Assembly: GCF_018860345.1 (NCBI RefSeq)
Contig: NZ_JAHKPJ010000021.1
Coordinates: 1-56,911, forward strand
Source: Psychrosphaera sp. F3M07
Lineage (GTDB): Bacteria > Pseudomonadota > Gammaproteobacteria > Enterobacterales > Alteromonadaceae
Direction of reading: 5' to 3'
DNA length: 56,911 nt
The notes under the pieces: generated by a model
Told to the model about the DNA's origin: nothing
Seen by the model: only the letters and a program-made list of their open reading frames with translations
The model's database searches: none
Program-made: the position numbers and the translations under genes
Part shown: piece after piece, positions 101-56,911 of the stretch
Layout: every line of letters starts with the position of its first letter
How positions within the stretch are numbered: position 1 is the first letter of the stretch

Positions 101-217
101 GTCTGGTGGCAATAGCGCTGTGGGACCACCTGAATCCATTTCGAACTCAGAAGTGAAACGCAGTTGCGGCGATGGTAGTGTGGCAGTCGCCATGCGAGAG
201 TAGCTCACCGCCAGACT
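101..217 (+). rRNA. rrf: 5S ribosomal RNA, copy 1
   Basis: About 116 nt with the usual bacterial 5S landmarks: the ACCACCTGAATCCAT block, CGAACTCAGAAGTGAAAC, the GATGGTAGTGTGG arm and GAGAGTAG near the 3' end. The first nine bases pair with the last nine to close helix I. It is the distal part of an rRNA operon whose 16S and 23S lie upstream of the window. Exact mature ends are uncertain by a few bases. Confidence 0.93.
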
Positions 218-305: not shown

Positions 306-422
306 GCTTGATGGCAATAGCGCTGTGGTACCACCTGAATCCATTCCGAACTCAGAAGTGAAACACAGTTGCGACGATGGTAGTGTGGCAGTCGCCATGC
401 GAGAGTAGTTCACTGTCAAGTA
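306..422 (+). rRNA. rrf: 5S ribosomal RNA, copy 2
   Basis: A second 5S gene in the same orientation, nearly identical in the core to copy 1. It differs at about a dozen positions, mostly in helix I, where both strands change together so that pairing is kept. This argues for a functional gene rather than a decayed copy. An extra 5S gene at the end of an rRNA operon is common in Alteromonadales and Vibrionales. Confidence 0.92.
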
Positions 423-21763: not shown

Positions 21764-22921
21764 TTAGGCAATTTCTTTTAATAATTCTCTAGCGATAACA
21801 ATACGTTGTATCTCGCTGGTACCTTCATAAATTGAAGTGATTCTGACATCACGAGTTAACCGTTCTAGTGGATATTCTTTAATATACCCGTAACCACCCA
21901 ACATTTGTAATGCATCGTAACAGGCGATATTGGCTTTTTCTGATGCAAATAACTTAGCCATGGAAGCTTGTTTAGAAAATGCTTGGCCTTGTTCTTTCAG
22001 GCAAGCAGCATTCATTAACAATAATCTTGCCGCTTCTAAGTCGGTATAGCGGTCTGCTAATATCCATTGTAACCCCTGGAATTTAGATAATTCTTGGTCG
22101 AATTGTTTACGCTGTGAAATATAATCACGGGCATAATCCATCGCAGCCAAACCAATGCCTACGGCTAAAGAGCCAATTCCAATTCGACCGCCAGCTAATT
22201 CGGCAACTGCAACTCTAAAGCCATCGTTTTCTTTACCCATTAACGCGGATGCTGGAATACGACAATCTTCAAAACGTACTTCATTGGTGGCTGATGCCTT
22301 TTGTCCCATTTTATGCTCAGCAGGCCCCACGATTAATCCCGGTGTACCATTCTCCACTAAGAAACAAGAAATGCCTTTGCCTTTTTTCGCCGTTGCATCA
22401 GTCACTGCCCAGACAACAAATACACCTGCATATTCAGCACTGGTGATAAACATTTTGGAACCATTTAAGATGTATTCGTCACCGTCTTTGATTGCACTTG
22501 TTTTCATGCCAGCAGGGTCGCTTCCCGCTTCAACTTCGGTCAAACAAAAGCCAGCGGCTGGGTATTCACCTGAGCAAATTTTGGGGATGTATTTTTGTTT
22601 TTGTTCTTCATTACCAACAGCCTGTATTACTTCTGCAACCATGTTTGTTACTGATGTAGTAACCGCAGTCGAAGCACAACCTTTGGCAATTTCAGTGATG
22701 GCTAAACTAAATGCAACACTACCAGCTTCAGTGCCACCATACTCGCCATTTATACTGAGTCCCATAAAGCCTAATTCAGCCAGCTGTTTAAGGTTGTTTA
22801 ATAAGATATCTTGTCCATCACCTTGATCTAATTTGGCTGCGTTAGGCAGTAATTCATTCTGTGCAAATTGACGAGCCGTGTCTTGGATCATCTGCTGTTC
22901 TTCAGTAAGAGCCGTATTCAT
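21764..22921 (-). CDS. Acyl-CoA dehydrogenase
   Basis: 385 residues, FAD enzyme introducing the alpha-beta double bond in acyl-CoA. Family blocks are all present: AAGFCLTEVEAGSDPAGMKTSA, YILNGSKMFITSAEYAGVFVVWAVTD, the middle beta domain, QLSKF-type QELSKFQGLQWILADRYTDLEAARLL, and the C-terminal LQMLGGYGYIKEYPLERLTRDVRITSIYEGTSEIQRIVIAREL, where the Glu of YEGTSEIQ is the catalytic base. Likely substrate is short or branched (2-methylbutyryl/butyryl) given the adjacent dehydrogenase; this is inference. First gene of the two-gene unit. Confidence 0.94.
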   Translation of the reverse strand: MNTALTEEQQMIQDTARQFAQNELLPNAAKLDQGDGQDILLNNLKQLAELGFMGLSINGEYGGTEAGSVAFSLAITEIAKGCASTAVTTSVTNMVAEVIQAVGNEEQKQKYIPKICSGEYPAAGFCLTEVEAGSDPAGMKTSAIKDGDEYILNGSKMFITSAEYAGVFVVWAVTDATAKKGKGISCFLVENGTPGLIVGPAEHKMGQKASATNEVRFEDCRIPASALMGKENDGFRVAVAELAGGRIGIGSLAVGIGLAAMDYARDYISQRKQFDQELSKFQGLQWILADRYTDLEAARLLLMNAACLKEQGQAFSKQASMAKLFASEKANIACYDALQMLGGYGYIKEYPLERLTRDVRITSIYEGTSEIQRIVIARELLKEIA

Positions 22922-23170
22922 ATATTTTCCTAACGATATTAGAAAGACAAAAAAGAGGCGTAATGTGCATTAAATCACTGGTAAATAAAAGGATAGGGGA
23001 TTAAATAACGAGTTGCATTATGTATGGATATTTTTACTAATTGTAAATCGTTGTTAGTGCAAAGTACTATTGAATCGGTTGGTTTAGACCACTAATCACA
23101 ACGCATGAATGTAAAGAATATCATTTACTAATTAGAGTGTAATTGAAATTAGTGGTTGGTTTAAAATAGA
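22922..23170. other. Intergenic region without a gene
   Basis: About 250 bases upstream of the acyl-CoA dehydrogenase gene, presumably with its promoter. I see no defined operator. It merges into the tRNA-derived repeats starting near 23171. Confidence 0.4.
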
Positions 23171-23635
23171 TGGGCGCTGCTCTTGTATTAGCGGCTCGAA
23201 CTATTTCGAATAATGTTTTTTAGAATTTAGAATTTAGAATTTAGAATTTAGAAAGTATTTACTAGTTTGAAAGTGGTGGGTGCTGCTCTTGGATTAGCGG
23301 GCTCGAACCATTTCGAGTAGTGTAGTTTGAAAGTGGTGGGCGCTGCTCTTGGATTAGCGGGCTCGAACCATTTCGAGTAGTGTAGTTTGAAAGTGGTGGG
23401 CGCTGCTCTTGTGTTAGCGGTTCGAACTGTTTCGAATAATGTTTTTTAATATTTAGAAAGTATTTACTAGTTTGAAAGTGGTGGGCGCTGCTCTTGGATT
23501 AGCGGGCTCGAACCATTTCGAATAATGTTTTTTAGTATTTAGAAAGTATTCAGAAAGTATTTACTAGTTTGAAAGTGGTGGGCGCTGCTCTTGGATTAGC
23601 GGGCTCGAACCATTTAGAGTAGTGTAGTTTGAAAG
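23171..23635 (-). repeat. Tandem array of tRNA-Val 3'-tail fragments
   Basis: Six degenerate units start near 23171, 23274, 23334, 23394, 23479 and 23576, with a basic period of 60 bases (longer where extra AT-rich sequence is inserted); the next unit start, at 23636, is the first intact tRNA-Val. Each unit keeps the tRNA 3' acceptor end (TGGTGGGCG on the plus strand) and the T-arm (GCTCGAACCA), but five bases between them are replaced by about 16 bases containing CGCTGCTCTT. They have no anticodon arm and cannot be functional tRNAs. Confidence 0.85.
23222..23254. repeat. Short tandem heptamer AGAATTT
   Basis: Four exact AGAATTT units followed by AGAAAG, lying between the first and second tRNA-tail fragments. 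Degenerate pieces of the same sequence (TTTAGAAAGTATTTACTAG) recur between later fragments at about 23450 and 23540. Confidence 0.8.
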
Positions 23636-23711
23636 TGGTGGGCGGTACTGGGCTCGAACCAGTGACCCTCGCCTTGTAAGGGCGATGCTCTCCCAGCTGA
23701 GCTAACCGCCC
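23636..23711 (-). tRNA. tRNA-Val (TAC), copy 3 of the array
   Basis: 76 bases including encoded CCA. Cloverleaf arms are complete and the anticodon loop reads CTTACAA, anticodon TAC. Identical to the two other copies. It is the last gene of the leftward tRNA-Val array and abuts the tRNA-tail repeats. Confidence 0.96.
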
Positions 23712-23762
23712 ACTTTCAAGGAGATATAATTAATTGATATTAACTAATTATTGTATTTAGAT

Positions 23763-23838
23763 TGGTGGGCGGTACTGGGCTCGAACCAGTGACCCTCGCC
23801 TTGTAAGGGCGATGCTCTCCCAGCTGAGCTAACCGCCC
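23763..23838 (-). tRNA. tRNA-Val (TAC), copy 2 of the array
   Basis: Identical in sequence to its neighbours, 76 bases with encoded CCA, anticodon TAC. Separated from the next copies by about 50 bases. Confidence 0.97.
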
Positions 23839-23885
23839 AACCTAAATACTGATGAAGCTGATACAAATTATTCGGGAAAATAATT

Positions 23886-23961
23886 TGGTGGGCGGTACTG
23901 GGCTCGAACCAGTGACCCTCGCCTTGTAAGGGCGATGCTCTCCCAGCTGAGCTAACCGCCC
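23886..23961 (-). tRNA. tRNA-Val (TAC), copy 1 of the array
   Basis: Promoter-proximal copy, 76 bases with encoded CCA, anticodon TAC. E. coli also places a tRNA-Val array next to gltX, so the neighbourhood is ancient. Confidence 0.97.
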
Positions 23962-24009
23962 AACTTCATCGATACATAACAACTAACTGCGCTGCTTCTG
24001 TGGGGGCGT

Positions 24010-24037
24010 ATTATAGGGAGACCTTAATTAGAGTCAA
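24010..24037 (-). promoter_or_regulatory. Promoter of the tRNA-Val array
   Basis: On the minus strand TTGACT (24032-24037), a 16-base spacer and a perfect TATAAT (24010-24015). The following ACGCCCCC is a GC-rich discriminator, as in stable RNA promoters under stringent control. The first tRNA begins about 49 bases downstream of the -10 box. Confidence 0.85.
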
Positions 24038-24113
24038 CTATAATTTTAAACTTTTTTACCGTTCGGTTAAATCTTAGACAAAGCGTTTGATATTTATAAA
24101 ATATGTTTGAAAT

Positions 24114-24578
24114 TTAGACGAGCTTTGCCATTTTCATAATGATATTCCACTCCGACTCAGTGACAGGTTGAATAGAAAGTCGGCCTCTTTTGACTAAAAC
24201 CATCTCCTCTAATGTTTTTGTGGCTTTAATTAATGCTAAAGGAACAAACTTAATACATTCTTGCTGATATTGAATATCCAAACTGACCCAACGTGGCGAT
24301 TCAGGTTTTGATTTAGGATCGTAATATTTTGATTCAGGATTAAATTGTAATGGGTCAGGGTAAGGGCTAGATACCACTTTAGCTGTTCCTGCCACTCCAA
24401 TGTTTTTACAACTAGAGTGATAAAATAATACCTGATCGCCCACTTTTATTTCATCTCTTATTAAGTTTCGAGCCTGATAGTTTCGGATGCCATCCCAACG
24501 TACAGTGCTGTTTTTATCATTTTTTAAATCAAGCAAGCTATAATCGTCAGGCTCAGATTTGAATAACCAGTAGTTCAT
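24114..24578 (-). CDS. EVE-domain protein
   Basis: 154 residues forming a single EVE domain: [65 protein letters not shown] and a C-terminal [20 protein letters not shown] domains are PUA-like readers of modified bases (5-methylcytosine and related) in DNA or RNA; the cellular target here is not known. The ATG at 24578 has a good GAGGTG ribosome site, better than a GTG six bases upstream. It is divergent from gltX and lies between gltX and the tRNA-Val array. Confidence 0.93.
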
Positions 24579-24675
24579 ATTCACCTCATTTATAGAATTT
24601 CCTACTGTTTATAGTAGGAAGTTTTCTATAGAATACGCGCAAATTTATATCATTTCATTTTTGTTGGAACATTCT

Positions 24676-26091
24676 ATGTCTGTTGTCACTCGTTTTGCTC
24701 CTAGCCCAACTGGTTATTTACATGTTGGTGGTGCTCGTACTGCTTTATATTCTTGGTTATATGCTAAACGCAATAACGGTAAATTTATTTTACGAATAGA
24801 AGATACCGATTTGGAACGCTCAACTCCTGAAGCGGTTCAAGCTATTTTAGATGGTATGCAATGGTTAGGAATGGAAGGGGATGGCGAGATCTTTTACCAA
24901 ACTAAACGTTTTGACTTGTATAAAGAGTATGTACAAACGTTAGTTGACGAAGATAAAGCATATAAATGTTATTGCACTAAAGAACGTTTGGATGCTTTAC
25001 GTGCAGAACAAGAAAGTAATGGCCAGCGTACAGAGTATGATGGTAAATGTAGCCATGGTGCAGAAGCTCCATCAGCAGAAGCACCTTATGTAGTTCGTTT
25101 TAGAAATCCAAAAAATGGCTCAGTTAAATGGACTGATGCAATTCGTGGTGAAATGGAAATTTCAAACTCTGAAATGGATGACATGATCATTCTACGAACA
25201 GACGGTAGTCCAACCTATAATTTCTGTGTTGTTATTGATGATTGGCAAATGGGTATGAGCCATGTCGTTCGTGGTGAAGATCATTTAATTAATACTGCTA
25301 AGCAAATTAATATTTTTGAAGCGTTTGGTGCAACCGTACCAACTTATGCACATTGTTCTATGATTTTAGGCGATGATGGTAAGAAATTATCAAAACGTCA
25401 TGGCGCAGTAGGGGTGATGCAATACCGCGATGATGGTTATTTACCTCAAGCTTTAATTAATTATTTAGTTCGCTTAGGCTGGTCTCATGGCGACCAAGAA
25501 ATATTTACACAAGATGAATTGTTTAATTTATTTGATATTAAAGATATTAACAAATCTGCATCTGCATTTAATACTGAAAAATTAAATTGGATGAACCAAG
25601 AATACATGAAAAACTTGCCAGCTTCTGAAGTAGCAAGTCACCTTGTTTGGCACTTTACTAATCAAGGTGTTGATACAACTAATGGTCCTAAATTAGAGTC
25701 TATCGTTGAAATTCAAGCTGAAAGGGTTAAAACCCTAAAAGAAATGGCAGAGATCAGTACCTATTTCTACCAAGACTTTGCACAGTTGGATGAAAAAGCA
25801 GCGAAGAAACATTTACGTCCCGTAGCGAAAGATTCGTTAGTATTAGCTCAGCAGAAACTAGAAGCGATTGTTGATTGGACTGCTGATAATATACAAAGTG
25901 CAATTAACGCTACCGCAGAGGAACTTGAGGTTGGCATGGGTAAAGTTGGGATGCCACTTAGAGTTGCGGTAACGGGAGGCGGTAACTCACCATCACTTGA
26001 TGTCACTTTGGTTTTGTTAGATAAAGGTAAAGTAATTAGTCGAATTAGTGATGCATTAGCTTATATAGCGGCACGTGAAGCGGCTCAATAG
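24676..26091 (+). CDS. gltX: Glutamate--tRNA ligase (GltX)
   Basis: Charges tRNA-Glu with glutamate. 471 residues, the same as E. coli GltX. Class I motifs: HVGG (HIGH-type, in [14 protein letters not shown]) and KLSKR (KMSKS-type, in [11 protein letters not shown]). The zinc-binding insertion is visible as KCYCTKERL with KCSHG. The C-terminal anticodon-binding helices match E. coli closely ([23 protein letters not shown]). The ATG at 24676 is preferred because similarity starts there and GGAA lies upstream; a TTG at 24661 would add five residues. tRNA-Glu genes, its substrate, follow 350 bases downstream. Confidence 0.98.
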
Positions 26092-26111
26092 GAATAAGTT
26101 AAATTAATAAA

Positions 26112-26140
26112 TAAAAGCCAGCCTAAAAGCTGGCTTTTGC
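26112..26140 (+). terminator. Rho-independent terminator of gltX
   Basis: AAAAGCCAGC pairs with GCTGGCTTTT in a ten-base-pair stem ending in T residues, 20 bases after the gltX stop. It separates gltX from the tRNA operon, so the two are not simply cotranscribed. Confidence 0.85.
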
Positions 26141-26241
26141 TATTTAAAGGCATAAATTCACGTATTTAGAATCAATTTTAACCTGTTTGTAAAAAAAATA
26201 GGCAGTCAGTCCAATAAAATACATTTTTATTAAAATAAGGG

Positions 26242-26270
26242 TTGACGCATTCATAGTGAATGCATAGAAT
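26242..26270 (+). promoter_or_regulatory. Promoter of the tRNA-Ala/tRNA-Glu operon
   Basis: TTGACG (26242-26247), exactly 17 bases, then TAGAAT (26265-26270), followed by the GC-rich discriminator GCGCCCCGCG. The spacer is itself a perfect inverted repeat, GCATTCA-TAG-TGAATGC (26247-26263). Stable-RNA-type promoter, probably under growth-rate and ppGpp control. Confidence 0.88.
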
Positions 26271-26320
26271 GCGCCCCGCGTTTGAGGCAATATATTGTTT
26301 CAAATGCATATCAAAATAGC

Positions 26321-26396
26321 GGGGCTATAGCTCAGCTGGGAGAGCGCCTGCCTTGCACGCAGGAGGTCTGCGGTTCGATCCCGCATAGCTCCACCA
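26321..26396 (+). tRNA. tRNA-Ala (TGC)
   Basis: 76 bases with encoded CCA. Begins GGGGCTATAGCTCAGCTGGG; anticodon loop CTTGCAC gives anticodon TGC. First gene of the Ala-Glu-Glu-Glu-Glu operon. Confidence 0.97.
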
Positions 26397-26424
26397 ACGT
26401 TTTGATATTTAATAAGTCCATAGT

Positions 26425-26500
26425 GCTCCCATCGTCTAGAGGCCTAGGACACCGCCCTTTCACGGCGGTAACAGGGGTTCGAATCCCCTTGGGAGTACCA
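26425..26500 (+). tRNA. tRNA-Glu (TTC), copy 1
   Basis: 76 bases with encoded CCA; anticodon loop CTTTCAC, anticodon TTC. The acceptor GCTCCCA/TGGGAGT has a G-U pair at 1-72. All four copies in the array are identical. Confidence 0.97.
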
Positions 26501-26528
26501 TTTCTTATAAAAGTTTTAATTGTCCTGT

Positions 26529-26604
26529 GCTCCCATCGTCTAGAGGCCTAGGACACCGCCCTTTCACGGCGGTAACAGGGGTTCGAATCCCCTTGGGAGT
26601 ACCA
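26529..26604 (+). tRNA. tRNA-Glu (TTC), copy 2
   Basis: Identical to copy 1, separated from it by 28 bases. Confidence 0.97.
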
Positions 26605-26614
26605 CTTTTAAGTT

Positions 26615-26654
26615 CAGATGCTTTCGAACCCTCGGGTTCGCTAATATAAATCTG
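26615..26654. repeat. Spacer hairpin element CAGAT...ATCTG, copy 1
   Basis: Spacer between tRNA-Glu copies 2 and 3: CAGAT and ATCTG enclose an inner GAACCC/GGGTTC repeat. A degenerate second copy lies at 26784-26822 after tRNA-Glu copy 3, and a third at about 27094-27132 inside the decayed region. The GGGTTCG in it matches the tRNA T-loop, giving a ready point for recombination. Confidence 0.65.
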
Positions 26655-26697
26655 ATGTTAAAAGTATAATTATTAAAACTAATTTGAAGTACCTAGT

Positions 26698-26773
26698 GCT
26701 CCCATCGTCTAGAGGCCTAGGACACCGCCCTTTCACGGCGGTAACAGGGGTTCGAATCCCCTTGGGAGTACCA
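26698..26773 (+). tRNA. tRNA-Glu (TTC), copy 3
   Basis: Identical to the other tRNA-Glu copies; preceded and followed by spacers carrying the CAGAT...ATCTG element. Confidence 0.97.
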
Positions 26774-26783
26774 CTTCAAGTTT

Positions 26784-26822
26784 CAGATGCTTTCGTACCT
26801 ACGGGTTACTAATATTAATCTG
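26784..26822. repeat. Spacer hairpin element, copy 2
   Basis: CAGATGCTTTCGTACC followed by GGGTTACTAAT and ATCTG: a diverged copy of the spacer element at 26615-26654. The inner pairing is partly lost. Confidence 0.6.
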
Positions 26823-26896
26823 AGCTTGAGATTACAGCTTCAAATGGCCAAGTTCAGTTATTTGCCTTACATAAGTAGGGGAGGTGACAACAAGAC

Positions 26897-26972
26897 GCTC
26901 CCATCGTCTAGAGGCCTAGGACACCGCCCTTTCACGGCGGTAACAGGGGTTCGAATCCCCTTGGGAGTACCA
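26897..26972 (+). tRNA. tRNA-Glu (TTC), copy 4
   Basis: Last intact tRNA-Glu of the operon, identical to the others, followed by a strong terminator. Confidence 0.97.
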
Positions 26973-26981
26973 CATTAAAGA

Positions 26982-27006
26982 AACCAGCTAATAGCTGGTT
27001 TTTTTT
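26982..27006 (+). terminator. Terminator of the tRNA-Ala/tRNA-Glu operon
   Basis: AACCAGCTA and TAGCTGGTT form a nine-base-pair stem followed by T residues. A damaged copy (AAACCAGCTTATGCTGTTTT) recurs at about 27152-27178, evidence that the array tail was duplicated together with its terminator. Confidence 0.85.
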
Positions 27007-27029
27007 CGTTTAAATTTTATGATGTGTTT

Positions 27030-27083
27030 TTTCACGGCGGTAACAGGGGTTCGCTCTTACAAACTCTGGCCTTGGGTGTACCA
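27030..27083 (+). pseudogene. tRNA-Glu fragment 1, chimeric 3' half
   Basis: Keeps the anticodon TTC, the 3' anticodon stem, variable loop and first half of the T-arm (ACAGGGGTTCG), then 16 foreign bases (CTCTTACAAACTCTGG, 27054-27069) replace AATCC, then the acceptor end CCTTGGGTGTACCA. The 5' half is gone. Not a working tRNA. Confidence 0.85.
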
Positions 27084-27111
27084 CATTTAAGTTCAGATAT
27101 ATCGAACCCTA

Positions 27112-27146
27112 GGGTTCACTCTTATAATCTGGCCTTGGAAGTAACA
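27112..27146 (+). pseudogene. tRNA-Glu fragment 2, tail only
   Basis: GGGTTCACTCTTATAATCTGG followed by CCTTGGAAGTAACA. It is the same chimeric T-arm/acceptor junction as fragment 1 but fused to the spacer hairpin on its left; CCA is damaged. A degenerate terminator copy follows at about 27152-27178. Confidence 0.75.
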
Positions 27147-27214
27147 TTAAAGAAACCAGCTTATGCTGTTTTTTTTTCGTCTAGAGTTTAGGTTTAAGTT
27201 ATTAGGTGAGTAGT

Positions 27215-27268
27215 TTTCAAGGCGGTAACAGGGGTTCACTCTTTCAAACACTGGCCTTGGGAGTACCA
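27215..27268 (+). pseudogene. tRNA-Glu fragment 3, chimeric 3' half
   Basis: Retains TTTCAAGGCGGTAACAGGGG, then GTTCACTCTTTCAAACACTGG in place of the T-arm 3' strand, and a perfect acceptor tail ending TACCA. Same architecture as fragment 1 with diverged insert. Confidence 0.82.
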
Positions 27269-27299
27269 CATTTAGTTTAGCTTTTTCACCTATATGTCA

Positions 27300-27323
27300 T
27301 AAAAAAACCAGCAATTAGCTGGC
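27300..27323 (-). terminator. Rho-independent terminator of rnhA
   Basis: On the minus strand CCAGC and GCTGG enclose a five-base loop and are followed by TTTTTTT, about 20 bases past the rnhA stop. Confidence 0.75.
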
Positions 27324-27343
27324 TCTTCAATTTAACAATAAGA

Positions 27344-27805
27344 TTAACCTTTAAAACCAACGTCATCGATTAATTTACTAGATTCGGCCGCTTCTCTGGC
27401 TAAATCATCAACAAGTTCGTTTTCTGGGTGTCCTGAGTGACCTTTGACCCAATGCCATGAGATCGTATGGTCTTTTACTTGTTCATCAAGCGCTTTCCAT
27501 AAATCTACATTTTTAACGGGTTGTTTGGCGGCCGTTTTCCAGCCATTTTTTTTCCAATTAATAATCCACTTAGTAATGCCATCTTTAACGTAATTACTGT
27601 CTGTTGTGATATCTAATGTACAAGGTTGCTTTAACGCTTCTAAACCTTTAATTACAGCTAGTAACTCCATTCGATTGTTGGTGGTTTTTTTATAGCCTTG
27701 GCTGAGTTCTTTTTTACTGCCGTTATAAATTAGCAGGGCACCGTATCCGCCTGGACCTGGGTTGCCTAAACAAGAGCCATCTGTGAAAAGTTGAACTGAT
27801 TTCAT
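27344..27805 (-). CDS. rnhA: Ribonuclease HI (RnhA)
   Basis: Cleaves the RNA strand of RNA-DNA hybrids during replication and R-loop removal. 153 residues (E. coli 155). Catalytic residues are visible in [17 protein letters not shown] (D9), NRMELLAV (Glu), TDSNYV (Asp) and the C-terminal [14 protein letters not shown] (Asp); the basic handle region [21 protein letters not shown] is present. It is divergent from dnaQ with 87 bases between, the arrangement also found in E. coli. Confidence 0.97.
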
Positions 27806-27892
27806 AAGGAAGATTTTCCAAATAGATGATATTCATAAGAAATAGGGGTTATACTCCATAATGAAGTTAAAGAACAATAAAATGAAAAGAAA

Positions 27893-28600
27893 ATGGCAAA
27901 ACGACAAATAATTTTAGATACAGAAACAACAGGTATTGACCCAAGACAAGGGCACAGAATCATTGAGATCGGTTGTGTAGAAATGATAAACCGTCGTTTA
28001 ACAGGTAATAACTTTCATGTTTATATTAATCCTAGACGTGCGATAGAAGATGAAGCCATTGGTGTCCATGGTATTACCAATGAATTCCTAAAAGATAAAC
28101 CATTGTTTAAAGATGTAGCGGATGAGTTTTTTGACTATATCAAAGGCGGAGAGTTAGTGATCCATAATGCACCATTTGATATTGGGCATATGGATAACGA
28201 GTTCGGTATTTTGTGGCAAGACTGGACTGGAACTGAAGATTTTTGTCCAGTGGTCGATACATTAGTAATGGCAAGAGAAAAACATCCGGGCCAAAAAAAT
28301 AGCTTAGATGCATTATGCCGCCGATATGAAATTGACAATACTCACCGCATGTTACATGGAGCACTATTAGACTCGGAAATATTAGCTGATGTTTACCTTC
28401 AAATGACAGGTGGACAAGTGGCGATGGATTTGGCTCATCAATTATTAAACGCAAATAATGCGGATAATACCCAGACAATAGTGAAACAAAGAAATTTAAA
28501 TGTGGTTTACGCAACTGAAAGTGAAATCTTAGATCACGATGCAAGATTAACTTTAATAGAAGAAAATGGTGGAACAAGTTTGTGGCGAAACATTCAATAA
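27893..28600 (+). CDS. dnaQ: DNA polymerase III epsilon subunit (DnaQ)
   Basis: Proofreading 3'-to-5' exonuclease of the replicase. 235 residues (E. coli 243). DEDDh motifs: ILDTETTGI (D9, E11), IHNAPFDIGHMDNEF, and HGALLDSEILADVYLQMTGGQ with the catalytic His and Asp. The C-terminal tail that binds the alpha subunit is present but short. Its last 19 bases overlap the next gene, suggesting translational coupling. Confidence 0.97.
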   Translation: MAKRQIILDTETTGIDPRQGHRIIEIGCVEMINRRLTGNNFHVYINPRRAIEDEAIGVHGITNEFLKDKPLFKDVADEFFDYIKGGELVIHNAPFDIGHMDNEFGILWQDWTGTEDFCPVVDTLVMAREKHPGQKNSLDALCRRYEIDNTHRMLHGALLDSEILADVYLQMTGGQVAMDLAHQLLNANNADNTQTIVKQRNLNVVYATESEILDHDARLTLIEENGGTSLWRNIQ

Positions 28601-29994
28601 TTTATGCCTGGTTAATTTTAACGCTTATAGCGGTATTGCCTAGTTTCGCTAATAATATCGATCCAGTTAATCCAACCAAAACATTAAATGTACCAAAGCT
28701 CGAGTTCCTAAAGAACTATGAGGGCCAAAATGAAATAAAAATATTAAATAACCGCTTTCGTGTGGATTACCACGTTAAAGAGGTTATGTTACTTTTTTTT
28801 AGAAAACATGGCTCCAAACCTATTGTATTAATCCAACCTGATGGTTCAAAGATATACCCTAAAGATGCCAATGCTAAAACCATAGAATGGCACGCTGATA
28901 TCAGTTATGACTTAATCAAACTTCAAGACCCAATGCCTGGACCGTGGCAAGCGGTTGGAAGAATCTTAGCGGACAGTAAAATTCTAGTTTTATCAGACAT
29001 TGAACTTCAAGCTGACTTATTTCCTTCACTCATGTTTCAGCACGAAATCATCAAAGCCGAAGCAAGAGTCATTAATGCCAATGAAATGATAAAAGCAAAA
29101 AGTTTTAATGAAGTGATCACCCTTAAAGCAAGTTTATACCCTAGTAAGGACCCTGAAAAAGAAAACTTTGGTTCAGACATATATCAGTTTGGGGAGTTTT
29201 TAGATAATGGTAAAGGGCTCGATGAAAGGCCTCGTGATGGTGTATTTACAATAGAATATAAAATTGACACTGGTTATGGTGAGTGGATACCTAATTATCG
29301 AGTTAACGCGCAGTTATTTACGCGTGAGTTAGAACAAGAGCCTGTAATAATATTGCCTTCACCAGTGTCCTTTACTGCTATACCAGCTGAAATTAATGAG
29401 GAAAGTGGTGAAGTAGGGCGTTATCACTATGTCACCTTTAATGTCGATGATACATATGTGGACAACTTAAGTTTGTTATTTCAAGGGACTATTAAATTTC
29501 CGAACGGCGATAAACAAACATTTAGTATTGATGGGTTACAAGAACGTCGTTTAGAAATATTTAATGGTGAGTTTGGTACGTTTAAAGTTGAAATGGATGT
29601 GTTTGGGACGACAAAAGATGGCCGTGAAATATATTTAGATTTACCTGAATTTCAATTTGTGACGGTTGAACCTGAAATTGAATATATTGAATTGCCTGAA
29701 ATGACCGAGATGGATACGGTAGTAAAAAAAGTTGCACCGCCTGAGCCAGATTTTCCATTACCTTTAATTATATTAATGAATGTGTTGATTTTGGCATTTG
29801 GTTTCTTAGTGATCTGGTTATTTGTATTAAAAAGAAATATTAAAAATCCATTTGCTGGCTTAATAAAGAAAAAAGAAAAAACGCCAGTTGAGCCGGAAAC
29901 TGTCGAAAAACCAAAGACAGAGAAGCCTGAGAAAAAATCGCCAATAGTGGATGAATCTGATGATATTTTAGACTTAAGTCTGCCAGAAGATTAG
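28582..29994 (+). CDS. TIGR03503-like membrane-anchored periplasmic protein
   Basis: 470 residues. An N-terminal signal peptide (IIYAWLILTLIAVLPSFAN) leads into a long beta-rich periplasmic region (about 25-390), one transmembrane helix (LPLIILMNVLILAFGFLVIWLFVL, about 395-418) and an acidic and proline/lysine-rich cytoplasmic tail ending DDILDLSLPED. This matches, to my recollection, the uncharacterised TIGR03503 family of Shewanella/Vibrio relatives. Translation starts at GTG 28582 inside dnaQ. Function unknown. It is inserted between dnaQ and the tRNA-Asp genes that directly follow dnaQ in E. coli. Confidence 0.75.
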   Translation: MAKHSIIYAWLILTLIAVLPSFANNIDPVNPTKTLNVPKLEFLKNYEGQNEIKILNNRFRVDYHVKEVMLLFFRKHGSKPIVLIQPDGSKIYPKDANAKTIEWHADISYDLIKLQDPMPGPWQAVGRILADSKILVLSDIELQADLFPSLMFQHEIIKAEARVINANEMIKAKSFNEVITLKASLYPSKDPEKENFGSDIYQFGEFLDNGKGLDERPRDGVFTIEYKIDTGYGEWIPNYRVNAQLFTRELEQEPVIILPSPVSFTAIPAEINEESGEVGRYHYVTFNVDDTYVDNLSLLFQGTIKFPNGDKQTFSIDGLQERRLEIFNGEFGTFKVEMDVFGTTKDGREIYLDLPEFQFVTVEPEIEYIELPEMTEMDTVVKKVAPPEPDFPLPLIILMNVLILAFGFLVIWLFVLKRNIKNPFAGLIKKKEKTPVEPETVEKPKTEKPEKKSPIVDESDDILDLSLPED

Positions 29995-30030
29995 AAATTG
30001 ACCACTTGAACAGATATCTGAAAAAAAGGG

Positions 30031-30059
30031 TTGACGGTATGGACTTCAGACTTTAATAT
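30031..30059 (+). promoter_or_regulatory. Promoter of the tRNA-Asp array
   Basis: TTGACG (30031-30036), a 17-base spacer and TAATAT (30054-30059), then a GC-rich discriminator CCGCGCCG. The first tRNA-Asp begins 40 bases after the -10 box. Confidence 0.87.
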
Positions 30060-30099
30060 CCGCGCCGTTGTTTAGCAAAGCTAACGACATGTAAGTCAG

Positions 30100-30176
30100 G
30101 GAGCGGTAGTTCAGTTGGTTAGAATACCGGCCTGTCACGCCGGGGGTCGCGAGTTCGAGTCTCGTCCGTTCCGCCA
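30100..30176 (+). tRNA. tRNA-Asp (GTC), copy 1
   Basis: 77 bases with encoded CCA; anticodon loop CTGTCAC, anticodon GTC. Complete cloverleaf. Confidence 0.97.
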
Positions 30177-30233
30177 CTTATATTGTCATTTGTTAAAAAA
30201 CACTAAGTTGTGATTAGTAAGAAACATTAAACT

Positions 30234-30310
30234 GGAGCGGTAGTTCAGTTGGTTAGAATACCGGCCTGTCACGCCGGGGGTCGCGAGTTCGAGTCTCGTC
30301 CGTTCCGCCA
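30234..30310 (+). tRNA. tRNA-Asp (GTC), copy 2
   Basis: Identical to copy 1; 57-base spacer between them. Confidence 0.97.
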
Positions 30311-30342
30311 TTTAATGTTAATGCTAAAAGTGTTCAAAAGCT

Positions 30343-30419
30343 GGAGCGGTAGTTCAGTTGGTTAGAATACCGGCCTGTCACGCCGGGGGTCGCGAGTTCG
30401 AGTCTCGTCCGTTCCGCCA
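30343..30419 (+). tRNA. tRNA-Asp (GTC), copy 3
   Basis: Identical to copies 1 and 2, 32 bases after copy 2. Confidence 0.97.
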
Positions 30420-30456
30420 CTTTTGAGACATTATTTTGATTAATACCCCTTAATCA

Positions 30457-30508
30457 CATCTTCAACGGATGTAAAACCTACCACTGCGGAGCGGTAGTTC
30501 AGTTGGTT
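30457..30508 (+). repeat. Direct repeat leading into pseudo-tRNA and tRNA-Asp
   Basis: A 52-base block (CATCTTCAACGGATG ... GGAGCGGTAGTTCAGTTGGTT) is repeated exactly 116 bases later at 30573-30624. The first copy leads into the broken tRNA at 30488, the second into the intact tRNA-Asp copy 4. Confidence 0.85.
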
Positions 30509-30574
30509 CGGCTTTTATGAAGAGCAGCGGCCTGTCAGGTCGGGTTCCGAGTTAGAGTTTCGTTTGTTCCGCCA
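30488..30574 (+). pseudogene. Expanded pseudo-tRNA-Asp 1
   Basis: 87 bases. The 5' acceptor and D-arm start are intact (GGAGCGGTAGTTCAGTTGGTT), then CGGCTTTTATGAAGAGCAG replaces the D-arm 3' part, followed by a changed anticodon arm (GGCCTGTCAGGTC), a mutated T-arm and TTCCGCCA. The anticodon GTC can still be read, but the arms no longer pair properly. Confidence 0.85.
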
Positions 30575-30603
30575 TCTTCAACGGATGTAAAACCTACCAC
30601 TGC

Positions 30604-30680
30604 GGAGCGGTAGTTCAGTTGGTTAGAATACCGGCCTGTCACGCCGGGGGTCGCGAGTTCGAGTCTCGTCCGTTCCGCCA
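30604..30680 (+). tRNA. tRNA-Asp (GTC), copy 4
   Basis: Intact, identical to copies 1-3, lying between pseudo-tRNA 1 and pseudo-tRNA 2. Confidence 0.97.
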
Positions 30681-30752
30681 TCATTTCCAAGTAATATTCC
30701 TCTAGTTTTAATTCCTAACTTTTCTTTCAAGCTATTTATATACATTCCCTTT

Positions 30753-30890
30753 TCAAAAATAAAATCCGTCATCTTTAACAAATGTGAAATCTACCAATGC
30801 GGAGCGGTAGTTCAGTTGGTTCGGCTTTTATGAAGATCATCGGCCTGTCACGCCGGGGGCGCATTCTTTGCGGCTAAGAGTGAGTCTCGT
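30753..30890 (+). repeat. 138-base duplicated block containing a pseudo-tRNA, first copy
   Basis: Nearly identical to 30984-31121, offset 231 bases; I can find only about three or four mismatches by eye. It contains upstream spacer plus most of the expanded pseudo-tRNA, so the insertion events predate the duplication. Confidence 0.85.
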
Positions 30891-30910
30891 TGTTCTTATT
30901 AAGAGTGCCA
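30801..30910 (+). pseudogene. Expanded pseudo-tRNA-Asp 2
   Basis: About 110 bases. Intact start and a perfect anticodon arm (CGGCCTGTCACGCCG), but with extra sequence after GGTTCG (GCTTTTATGAAGATCAT) and a second insert after the variable loop (GCATTCTTTGCGGCTAAGAG). The 3' end is altered to AAGAGTGCCA. Confidence 0.85.
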
Positions 30911-31031
30911 TATTTCCTAGTTATCTCCTTGTATTAAATTCACTCTCAAAGCTAACGTTTAAATCAGATCATATATTTCATTCTCAAAAATAAAATCCGT
31001 CATCTTTAACAAATGTGAAATCTACCAATGC

Positions 31032-31131
31032 GGAGCGGTAGTACAGTTGGTTCGGCTTTTATGAAGATCATCGGCCTGTCACGCGGGGGGCGCATTCTTT
31101 GCGGCTAAGAGTGAGTCTCGTCCGTTTTCCA
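31032..31131 (+). pseudogene. Expanded pseudo-tRNA-Asp 3
   Basis: About 100 bases, a duplicate of pseudo-tRNA 2 with the same two inserts and point changes (TAGTACAG, CACGCGGGGG). The T-arm end TCTCGTCCGTT remains, but the CCA end is lost (TTTTCCAC). Confidence 0.83.
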
Positions 31132-31227
31132 CTAATAACGCAGTAGCCCCAGAATCCATCAGTTCTATTACTTCTAAGATAAGGAGTATTGCGTTAATAA
31201 ATTCAGTGTTTGAAGATTTAGAGCTTG

Positions 31228-32031
31228 TTACTTGTTCTTAAATGGCATGGTTAATAAACCAAGAAGTGAGGCGTTTTGTTTGGCTTGGGGGTATTCAATT
31301 AGGCCAATATCAAGTTTATCATCAGTTTTATTAGCCTGGTTCTTATAACTACCAAATAGCTTATCCCACCAAATAACACTAAAACCATAATTTGAATTGG
31401 TTTCAGTTACAACTTGGCTATGGTGTATTCGGTGTAACACTTGAGTCATTAGAACTAGTCTTAATGGCTTTTCAATGGCGTCAGGTAAGCGTATGTTGGC
31501 GTGGTTGAATAATGCCAAGCCGTTTAACGCAATTTCAAATATAAGCACGGCAATGGCTGGAACGCCTAATGTGGTGACTGCAACAAACTTGACCGATATG
31601 CTAATAACAATTTCAATTGGATGAAAACGTAGACCTGTACTGGTATCGACATGTGCATCAGCGTGATGGACTTTATGTAAACGCCACAGCATAGGTACTT
31701 TATGAAATAACCTGTGTTGCCAATAAATTAAGATATCTAATAGTAAAAGGCACAATACAACGATTAGCCAATAGGGAATGTTGTTCGTCAACAGTGGTTG
31801 ATTAAACAAGCCGATGCCATGTTCTGCATTGTACAAAGCTACCGCAGTTAAACCGATTGGAACCACGAGTCTTGCTAATAAAGACGAGGTAAATACTAAG
31901 CCAAAGTTAGCTAACCAGCGTTTAGTATTTTCAATGGGGGATTGGCGTGCAGGTATCCGCCATTCCAGTAACATCATTATTACTAAAATGCTGAAAAAGA
32001 AACCAAGTCGCCACCATACTTCGTTAGTCAT
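31228..32031 (-). CDS. Sterol desaturase / fatty acid hydroxylase superfamily membrane protein
   Basis: 267 residues with about five hydrophobic segments and the di-iron histidine boxes: HRLFH, HKVHHAD and the later HRIHHSQ, with a further His near LFNHANI. Enzymes of this superfamily hydroxylate or desaturate lipid chains or sterols at the membrane. The residue pattern (LLDILIYWQHRLFHKVPMLWRLHKVHHAD) is the common bacterial form of unknown substrate. It overlaps the phosphatidyltransferase gene by eight bases and ends the seven-gene cluster. Confidence 0.9.
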   Translation of the reverse strand: MTNEVWWRLGFFFSILVIMMLLEWRIPARQSPIENTKRWLANFGLVFTSSLLARLVVPIGLTAVALYNAEHGIGLFNQPLLTNNIPYWLIVVLCLLLLDILIYWQHRLFHKVPMLWRLHKVHHADAHVDTSTGLRFHPIEIVISISVKFVAVTTLGVPAIAVLIFEIALNGLALFNHANIRLPDAIEKPLRLVLMTQVLHRIHHSQVVTETNSNYGFSVIWWDKLFGSYKNQANKTDDKLDIGLIEYPQAKQNASLLGLLTMPFKNK

Positions 32032-56714: not shown

Positions 56715-56911
56715 GGCGAAAAAGGCCGCTTCCAAACAAAATCCAATACTTATTAAATAGTTATTTTTGTTTACAAAAGCGGACTGAAAAGTCATCCCTG
56801 ACAAACAGTCCTTTCTCAGCATCCATGCTTCGAATTTTATAAAAATAATATTTAACGAAGCGATTTTGTGATGGAGAGGTAAAGCAGAGCAAAAAGCAAA
56901 AGCAAAAAGCA

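What the first reader, a model, noticed from the sequence alone, without database searches (positions are those of the whole stretch)
23171..31131. Shared insert sequences in decayed tRNAs of three different arrays
Broken tRNA-Val, tRNA-Glu and tRNA-Asp copies all carry extra bases directly after a GGTTCG/GGTTCA (T-loop in Val and Glu, D-loop-like in Asp), and the inserts resemble one another across arrays. AAGAGCAGCG occurs exactly in the Val fragments (minus strand; plus-strand CGCTGCTCTT at 23175, 23341, 23401, 23486, 23583) and in pseudo-Asp 1 (30520-30529). TAAGAGTGA occurs in pseudo-Asp 2 and 3 (30875, 31106) and, reverse complemented, in Glu fragment 2 (27116-27124). The Glu inserts (CTCTTACAAACTCTGG and variants) also look like the boxA-containing leader or spacer sequences of rRNA operons. 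One mechanism, such as template switching with rrn spacers or a small mobile element targeting GGTTCG, could explain all three. The matches are short and found after the fact, so chance is not excluded.
Basis: partly seen in the sequence, partly recalled or inferred. Interest (0 to 1): 0.72.

Follow-up and report, generated by a model that had tools for sequence, protein, structure and literature searches.

The report
Loop-expanded broken tRNAs ending tRNA arrays
Behind several tRNA gene arrays this bacterium carries rows of broken tRNA copies whose loops were enlarged by one recurring short sequence, a cousin of known tRNA-operon repeats whose cause and purpose are still open.

Summary
The window is from a Psychrosphaera species. 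Degenerate copies inside or after its Val, Glu and Asp arrays carry inserts, and so do copies after its fMet and Asn arrays. The inserts share CTCTT or its complement AAGAG: 12 of 12 insert classes, where the best 5-mer in shuffles reached at most 5 (some classes picked after seeing the likeness). The 10-mer AAGAGCAGCG alone is weak evidence. Two sister species carry homologous copies at all three arrays; in three none was found there. Loop-expanded copies also accompany fMet or Val arrays in other genera of the family, not always with this core.

A genome-wide mobile element is not supported, and no rRNA-operon donor was found. The core resembles boxA (GYTCTTTAANA) imperfectly; the window's scored copies match 7 to 9 of 11. 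Closest known kind: the E. coli tyrT/RtT repeats, tandem units each ending in a tRNA 3' end; the Rfam RtT model does not match here.

I favour local tandem duplication of tRNA 3' units plus short-homology template switching between degenerate copies (0.45). A selected boxA-like role is the most novel reading not excluded (about 0.2). New variant of a known kind.

The parts
23165..23635 (-). six tandem degenerate tRNA-Val 3' pieces downstream of the Val array, insert between T-loop and acceptor 3' strand (GCTAATCCAAGAGCAG and variants)
   Evidence: homologues in P. saromensis L029 and uncultured Psychrosphaera L085
23636..23961 (-). three intact tRNA-Val(TAC) genes
26321..26972 (+). tRNA-Ala(TGC) and four intact tRNA-Glu(TTC) genes; the two longer Glu-Glu spacers (26605-26697, 26774-26896) hold hairpins with GGGTTCGCTAAT or GGGTTACTAAT
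26978..27010 (+). intrinsic-terminator-like hairpin and T run after the last Glu gene; a decayed copy recurs near 27150-27180
   Evidence: read; the scan lists this hairpin on the other strand only, and terminator-like sites in the region are no more frequent than in shuffles
27030..27090 (+). degenerate Glu copy 1, T-loop insert CTCTTACAAACTCTGG
   Evidence: pattern exact at 27039-27058
27094..27146 (+). degenerate Glu piece 2: looks like a copy of the array's spacer hairpin carrying CTCTTATAATCTGG before a Glu 3' end
   Evidence: read; compare spacers in L029 and L030
27209..27272 (+). degenerate Glu copy 3, T-loop insert CTCTTTCAAACACTGG
30100..30419 (+). three intact tRNA-Asp(GTC) genes
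30488..30574 (+). degenerate Asp copy 1, D-loop insert CGGCTTTTATGAAGAGCAG
   Evidence: same insert in L078, close variant in L079
30604..30680 (+). fourth intact tRNA-Asp
30801..30910 (+). degenerate Asp copy 2, inserts in D-loop (..AAGATCAT) and T-arm (ATTCTTTGCGGCTAAGAGT)
31032..31132 (+). degenerate Asp copy 3, same two inserts

Best explanation
These are dead or non-coding tandem units at the 3' ends of tRNA arrays, of the same general kind as the E. coli tyrT/RtT repeats. A piece of tRNA with its trailer (in some arrays including the terminator) is duplicated downstream. One degenerate copy acquired a short semi-palindromic loop insert, roughly GCTCTT-nnnn-AAGAGC. Parts of that insert then reached other arrays by recombination or template switching at short homologies, typically GGTT(C) in T- and D-loops. 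Local tandem duplication and drift did the rest. Shown: the units, their homology to the neighbouring tRNAs, their tandem growth, their sharing among sister species, and the shared core. Inferred: the form of the first insert, the transfer step and its direction, the original source, and lack of function.
For: Copies lie inside or downstream of arrays: 0 of 42 tRNA units in G000 and G003 gave a hit in up to 700 nt upstream, and 1 of 50 further arrays did within 900 nt. Copy number differs among sisters: about eight fMet copies in G001, four in P. saromensis, two or three in G000. Val, Glu and Asp copies are shared by G000, G001 and G003; none was found at these arrays in G004, G005 and G007. 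Insert relatedness. In the Asp D-loop the GGTTCG border replaces native GGTTAG in G000, G001 and one G002 copy, as if the tract came in with its own CG; G003 keeps GGTTAG. Copied terminators follow most displayed fMet units in G094, G139, G093, G112 and G075. Several inserts are near-palindromes; summed stems 93 against 79 in shuffles, p 0.001 (25 inserts, not independent).
Against: No donor was identified. The core also occurs in anticodon loops (Asn; Val in G011, G022, G025; fMet in G139), where the GGTT border is missing, so simple T-loop homology cannot explain all cases. Some loop-expanded or partial copies lack it: the Phe units, a G020 Glu copy, the G049 Val, Ala and Glu copies, all six G021 Val copies, the two downstream G011 copies and the two internal G025 copies. 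Recurrence of one core in three arms and several genera leans towards selection or an insertion mechanism. Only 2 of 25 inserts have a stem better than shuffles at 0.05 (fMet G000 and one G025 copy).
Confidence: 0.45

Rival explanations
1. The expanded loops are boxA-like sites: in RNA that reads past the array, CUCUU(U) in a loop binds NusB-S10 and changes Rho termination, processing or Nus factor supply.
For: CTCTT lies on the sense strand in 17 of 25 inserts. Best match to GYTCTTTAANA is 11/11 in 1 (the best of the G075 copies) and 10/11 in 3 of 24 typed copies (consensus from passages of PMC5725501). After arrays with a repeated tRNA, boxA with at most 1 mismatch is 8 sense to 2 antisense; 0 to 4 at other tRNA units (G000, G003 and part of G001).
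Against: Upstream of the same arrays near-boxA is also mostly sense (4 to 1, and 5 to 2 at the others), so the strand bias is not special to the units. Psychrosphaera Val and G000/G001/G003 Asp D-loop copies show the core, where they have it, on the antisense strand. Three window copies scored match 9, 7 and 7 of 11. No common fold. In Glu and fMet arrays of several genomes the units lie after a terminator. Most fMet examples beyond the genus were found by searching for the insert. Plain CTCTT is more frequent on the antisense strand downstream (47 to 23).
Confidence: 0.2
2. A tiny mobile hairpin inserts into loops of tRNA-like DNA.
For: Both halves (CTCTT....AAGATC or AAGAGC) recur in different arms and tRNAs.
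Against: No dispersal outside arrays: 9 hits to 6 control hits. Hairpins of the form CTYTT..AAGAKC exceed their control in all 8 genus genomes, including G004, G005 and G007, where no copies were found at the Val, Glu and Asp arrays.
Confidence: 0.07
3. The copies are left-over attachment sites of integrative elements that target tRNA genes.
For: 3' tRNA pieces downstream of a tRNA are typical of displaced attR sites (recalled).
Against: Copies keep 5' parts too (Asp), repeat in short tandem, and have no element between them in the window. The phage matches listed cover the intact tRNA in each query (20 of 342 records listed, the rest not seen).
Confidence: 0.06
4. A processed small RNA function as proposed for RtT or tRNA-trailer sponges, unrelated to boxA.
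For: Same layout as E. coli rttR; RtT RNAs are reported as released from tRNA operons (PMC4986893 passages).
Against: No RtT match in window 22900-31300, in 8 other Psychrosphaera loci, or in 3 Phe loci and 4 fMet loci of other genera, at E up to 0.5 or 1; weak folds.
Confidence: 0.2

Closest known systems
E. coli tyrT/tyrV operon repeats and RttR (Rfam RtT, RF00391)
   Same: Tandem units downstream of repeated tRNA genes; in MG1655 each unit ends in the last bases of tRNA-Tyr with the stretch before them enlarged.
   Different: RtT units are long, strongly folded and have no CTCTT. Psychrosphaera copies are shorter, weakly folded, affect several tRNA types and share one insert; no RF00391 match.
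boxA element of rRNA operons (NusB-S10 site)
   Same: Core (G)CTCTTT(A); the best 4 of 24 copies match 10 or 11 of 11 consensus positions.
   Different: In rrn operons boxA lies before the RNA that it serves (leader and ITS); here the likeness lies in broken tRNA loops at array ends, and is imperfect or absent in many copies.
tRNA pseudogenes and pseudo-tRNA (for example tRNAOther of Bacillus cereus, PMC3399842, start of abstract seen)
   Same: tRNA-like sequence not expected to work in translation.
   Different: Tandem, array-linked, with a shared loop insert in several tRNA types.
tRNA 3' external transcribed spacer sponges (recalled, nothing read)
   Same: RNA from tRNA operon trailers.
   Different: No target or transcript known here.

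Membership tests
RtT RNA / tyrT-type repeats | tandem units downstream of tRNA genes, each ending in the tRNA 3' end | tested here: met
   for Val, Glu, Asp, Asn, fMet and Phe units; some distal copies have lost the end, and Asp units are partly inside the array
RtT RNA / tyrT-type repeats | match to covariance model RF00391 | tested here: not met
   no match in window 22900-31300, 8 Psychrosphaera loci or 3 Psychrosphaera Phe loci; positive control E. coli L236 four matches of 133-138 bits; one sub-threshold match, 40.1 bits (cut-off 45), in genome G049 of another family
RtT RNA / tyrT-type repeats | stable RNA released from the transcript | not testable with these tools
   needs RNA data
boxA | match to GYTCTTTAANA on the transcribed strand | tested here: inconclusive
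   11/11 in 1, 10/11 in 3 of 24 copies; the three window copies scored have 9, 7 and 7
boxA | binds NusB-S10 | not testable with these tools
   -
mobile element | copies dispersed outside its source locus | tested here: not met
   9 hits against 6 control hits in 8 genomes; one search shows no excess specific to genomes with the units
integrative-element attachment remnants | integrase or element beside the displaced tRNA end | tested here: inconclusive
   no element lies between the tandem copies; the 20 phage rows listed match intact tRNAs only; integrase genes nearby were not searched for

The most novel reading that the evidence does not exclude
A class of non-coding elements in this family of marine bacteria: degenerate tRNAs at the ends of tRNA arrays, remodelled so that an arm presents a boxA-like CUCUUU loop, often alternating with terminators. 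They would recruit NusB-S10 (Nus factors) to readthrough transcripts of tRNA operons and so tie tRNA output to the supply of rRNA antitermination factors.
Probability: 0.18. Interest if true: 0.78.

Novelty: new variant of a known kind. Interest (0 to 1): 0.47.

Why it matters
It shows that the ends of bacterial tRNA arrays can be nurseries of tandem, fast-evolving tRNA-derived units in several genera, well beyond the tyrT case of E. coli. It also raises a testable question: why do copies of different tRNAs, in different arms and genera, end up with nearly the same loop core? If that core works as boxA, it would be a new link between tRNA operons and the Nus machinery. If not, it is a natural record of template switching between non-allelic tRNA genes.

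Tried and rejected
rrn leader or spacer as donor: 16 insert-to-rrn alignments, one with p 0.047 (fMet insert to ITS, uncorrected), the rest above 0.05. Mobile element: rejected. Hairpin as the general form: summed effect only; Glu, Asn, G094 and G075 inserts have no stem above chance. Rfam families: nothing at or above a curated cut-off in the array-end units themselves; several weak sub-threshold matches, mostly over intact tRNAs. Phage origin: only intact tRNAs among the 20 rows listed. Origin of the Glu insert from the array's own spacer hairpin looks right by eye when GGTTCG and the CTGGCC flank are included, but the insert alone aligns no better than shuffles (p 0.11 to 0.90). Origin from the native Val anticodon loop (CTTACAA) was noticed; Val tRNA was one target (p 0.10 to 1.0) and it was not adopted.

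Literature: searches listed no paper that I recognised as describing such units, apart from RtT; for most listed papers only titles and abstract starts were seen. One search failed on a character and was not repeated. Papers: PMC5725501 and PMC4986893, passages only; PMC3399842, start of abstract only. Bosl and Kersten 1991 was seen only as a citation. 3' ETS sponges and attR anatomy are recalled.

Full report
Setting. The window is positions 1-56911 of contig 26 of a 3.87 Mb genome. The window holds Val x3 (minus strand), Ala plus Glu x4, and Asp x4.

Observation. All coordinates in the finding are right. Of 10 exact AAGAGCAGCG sites in the genome, 6 are in these arrays. Of the other 4, the sequence around 2 was read by eye and showed nothing tRNA-like; the other 2 were not read.

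Extent in this genome. The same kind of unit follows the fMet array (GTCGTAGGTTC|GCTCTTTACAAAAGACG|CTGCTACCGCAACCA) and the Asn array (GGACTGT|ACTCTTTAACTTGC|.., at a contig end). None was seen after the Lys, Gly/Cys/Leu, Pro/Arg/His/Leu or Met/Leu/Gln arrays. Behind the Phe array the tRNA 3' end recurs, but without the CTCTT insert.

Sister species. G003 has Glu, Val, Asp, Asn and fMet units; G001 has Glu, Val, Asp and fMet units, and its Asn contig ends at the array; G002 and G006 have Asp units; none was found at the Val, Glu or Asp arrays of G004, G005 and G007 (their other arrays were not examined one by one). The Asp D-loop insert is identical in G000 and G001, differs by two bases in G003 and more in G002.

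Systematic look. Searching up to 700 nt upstream, the array itself, and up to 900 nt downstream of 42 tRNA units in G000 and G003 for pieces of their own tRNAs gave 0 upstream hits. The Val and fMet pieces fell below this BLAST cut-off and were seen by eye. Two apparent upstream hits in G001 (L078, L128) come from tRNA genes at contig ends that the gene finder missed or misplaced. The same test on 13 family or order loci found copies in G020, G022 and G040. On 50 more arrays it gave hits in 1 upstream, 4 internal and 7 downstream regions; one of the 7 is an ordinary Glu gene cut by a contig end (G025), and G139 (one internal, one downstream) was included because its units were already known. 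Among the rest, G022 Val (AACTCTTTC, TGCTCTTTC), one upstream G011 Val copy (ACTCTTTAC) and three downstream G025 Val copies (TTCTCTTAG, CTCTCTTAG) carry the core in the anticodon loop; G040 Glu has it on the other strand. The G020 Glu copy, the G049 Val, Ala and Glu copies, six G021 Val copies, two downstream G011 copies and two internal G025 copies do not have it in their loops. In Val anticodon loops part of the core (CTTAC) is native, which weakens those cases.

fMet units beyond the genus. A query with G001 fMet units matched 5 of 147 family genomes, two of them outside the genus: G094 and G139. A pattern search matched 9 of 394 order genomes: six have array-end units (G000, G034, G075, G093, G094, G112) and three (G225, G394, G415) look like chance hits away from any tRNA. 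In G139 one copy has the core in both the anticodon loop (GGGCTGCTCTTTATAACCCC) and the T-loop. Most displayed units in G075, G093, G094, G112 and G139 are followed by a terminator copy. These examples were found through the motif and do not count as independent support for it. A Glu-specific pattern is limited to G000, G001 and G003 among 147 genomes.

Chance. In 12 insert classes (by tRNA, arm and clade) CTCTT or AAGAG occurs in 12; the most frequent 5-mer of shuffled sets had mean 2.8 and maximum 5 in 2000 shuffles. Of 25 inserts in a wider list, 17 have CTCTT, 6 AAGAG, 23 either; the two without are one G021 and one G025 insert. For this genome alone p is 0.0003-0.001. Several classes were chosen after seeing the likeness, and copies without an insert (Phe, G020, G049) were not entered, so these values flatter the result.

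What the core is. The rrn boxA of P. saromensis reads TTGCTCTTTAACAA in the ITS and ATGTTCTTTAACAA in the leader; the published gamma-proteobacterial consensus is GYTCTTTAANA (PMC5725501, passages). The 24 copies scored match 7 to 11 of 11 positions; the window's Glu copy 1, Asp D and Val copies match 9, 7 and 7. In up to 600 nt downstream of arrays with a repeated tRNA, near-boxA is 8 sense and 2 antisense; at other tRNA units 0 and 4; upstream it is 4 and 1, and 5 and 2. So a sense bias is not special to the units. The plain 5-mer is more frequent on the antisense strand downstream (47 to 23), mainly Val and Asp copies. The inserts also lean to short palindromes in sum, but only fMet G000 and one G025 copy pass 0.05 alone. 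RNAfold shows no shared structure.

Where it came from. No tested donor (array spacers, rrn leader and ITS, fMet spacer, Val, Asp and Glu tRNAs) stands out. The motif is not dispersed in eight genus genomes, and CTYTT..AAGAKC hairpins are as frequent in species without units at these arrays.

Closest known thing. In E. coli MG1655 the tyrT-tyrV-rttR locus shows repeats whose tRNA-Tyr 3' ends lie 178 bases apart, and Rfam finds four RtT matches there. The window and the Psychrosphaera loci tested give none; genome G049 of another family gives a sub-threshold one. So the layout is RtT-like, membership is not met.

Verdict. The shared inserts are real and belong to a wider set of loop-expanded, tandem, tRNA-derived units at array ends. 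Duplication is shown. Transfer between arrays by short-homology template switching is the best single account for the window (0.45), chiefly because the Asp D-loop shows the foreign CG of GGTTCG (not in G003, which keeps GGTTAG). Recurrence of the core in other arms keeps selection, including a boxA-like role, in play.

Noticed in passing
window 102-216 and 307-421 (+): Two 5S rRNA genes in tandem at the contig start.
   Followed up: no
window 26321-26396 (+): The tRNA-Ala heading the Glu array reads anticodon TGC here but GGC in G001-G005 and G007, as if replaced by the rrn-type Ala gene.
   Followed up: no
L086, L110, L130 downstream of Phe arrays: tRNA-Phe 3' end recurs after a long hairpin-rich spacer, RtT-like in layout, without CTCTT in the tRNA piece.
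   Followed up: partly
L255 7610-7736 (-): RtT (RF00391) match at 40.1 bits, just under the curated cut-off of 45, between Ala and Glu genes in genome G049.
   Followed up: no
G003:C6:3552499-3555144 (-): 16S rRNA gene in several overlapping, out-of-order pieces in the P. saromensis assembly; possibly an assembly fault.
   Followed up: no
window 56723-56883 (-): TwoAYGGAY RNA match at 44.1 bits, cut-off 43.
   Followed up: no
L209 about 990-1080: A further odd in-array fMet copy in G094 with changed D and anticodon arms and a foreign T-arm end.
   Followed up: no
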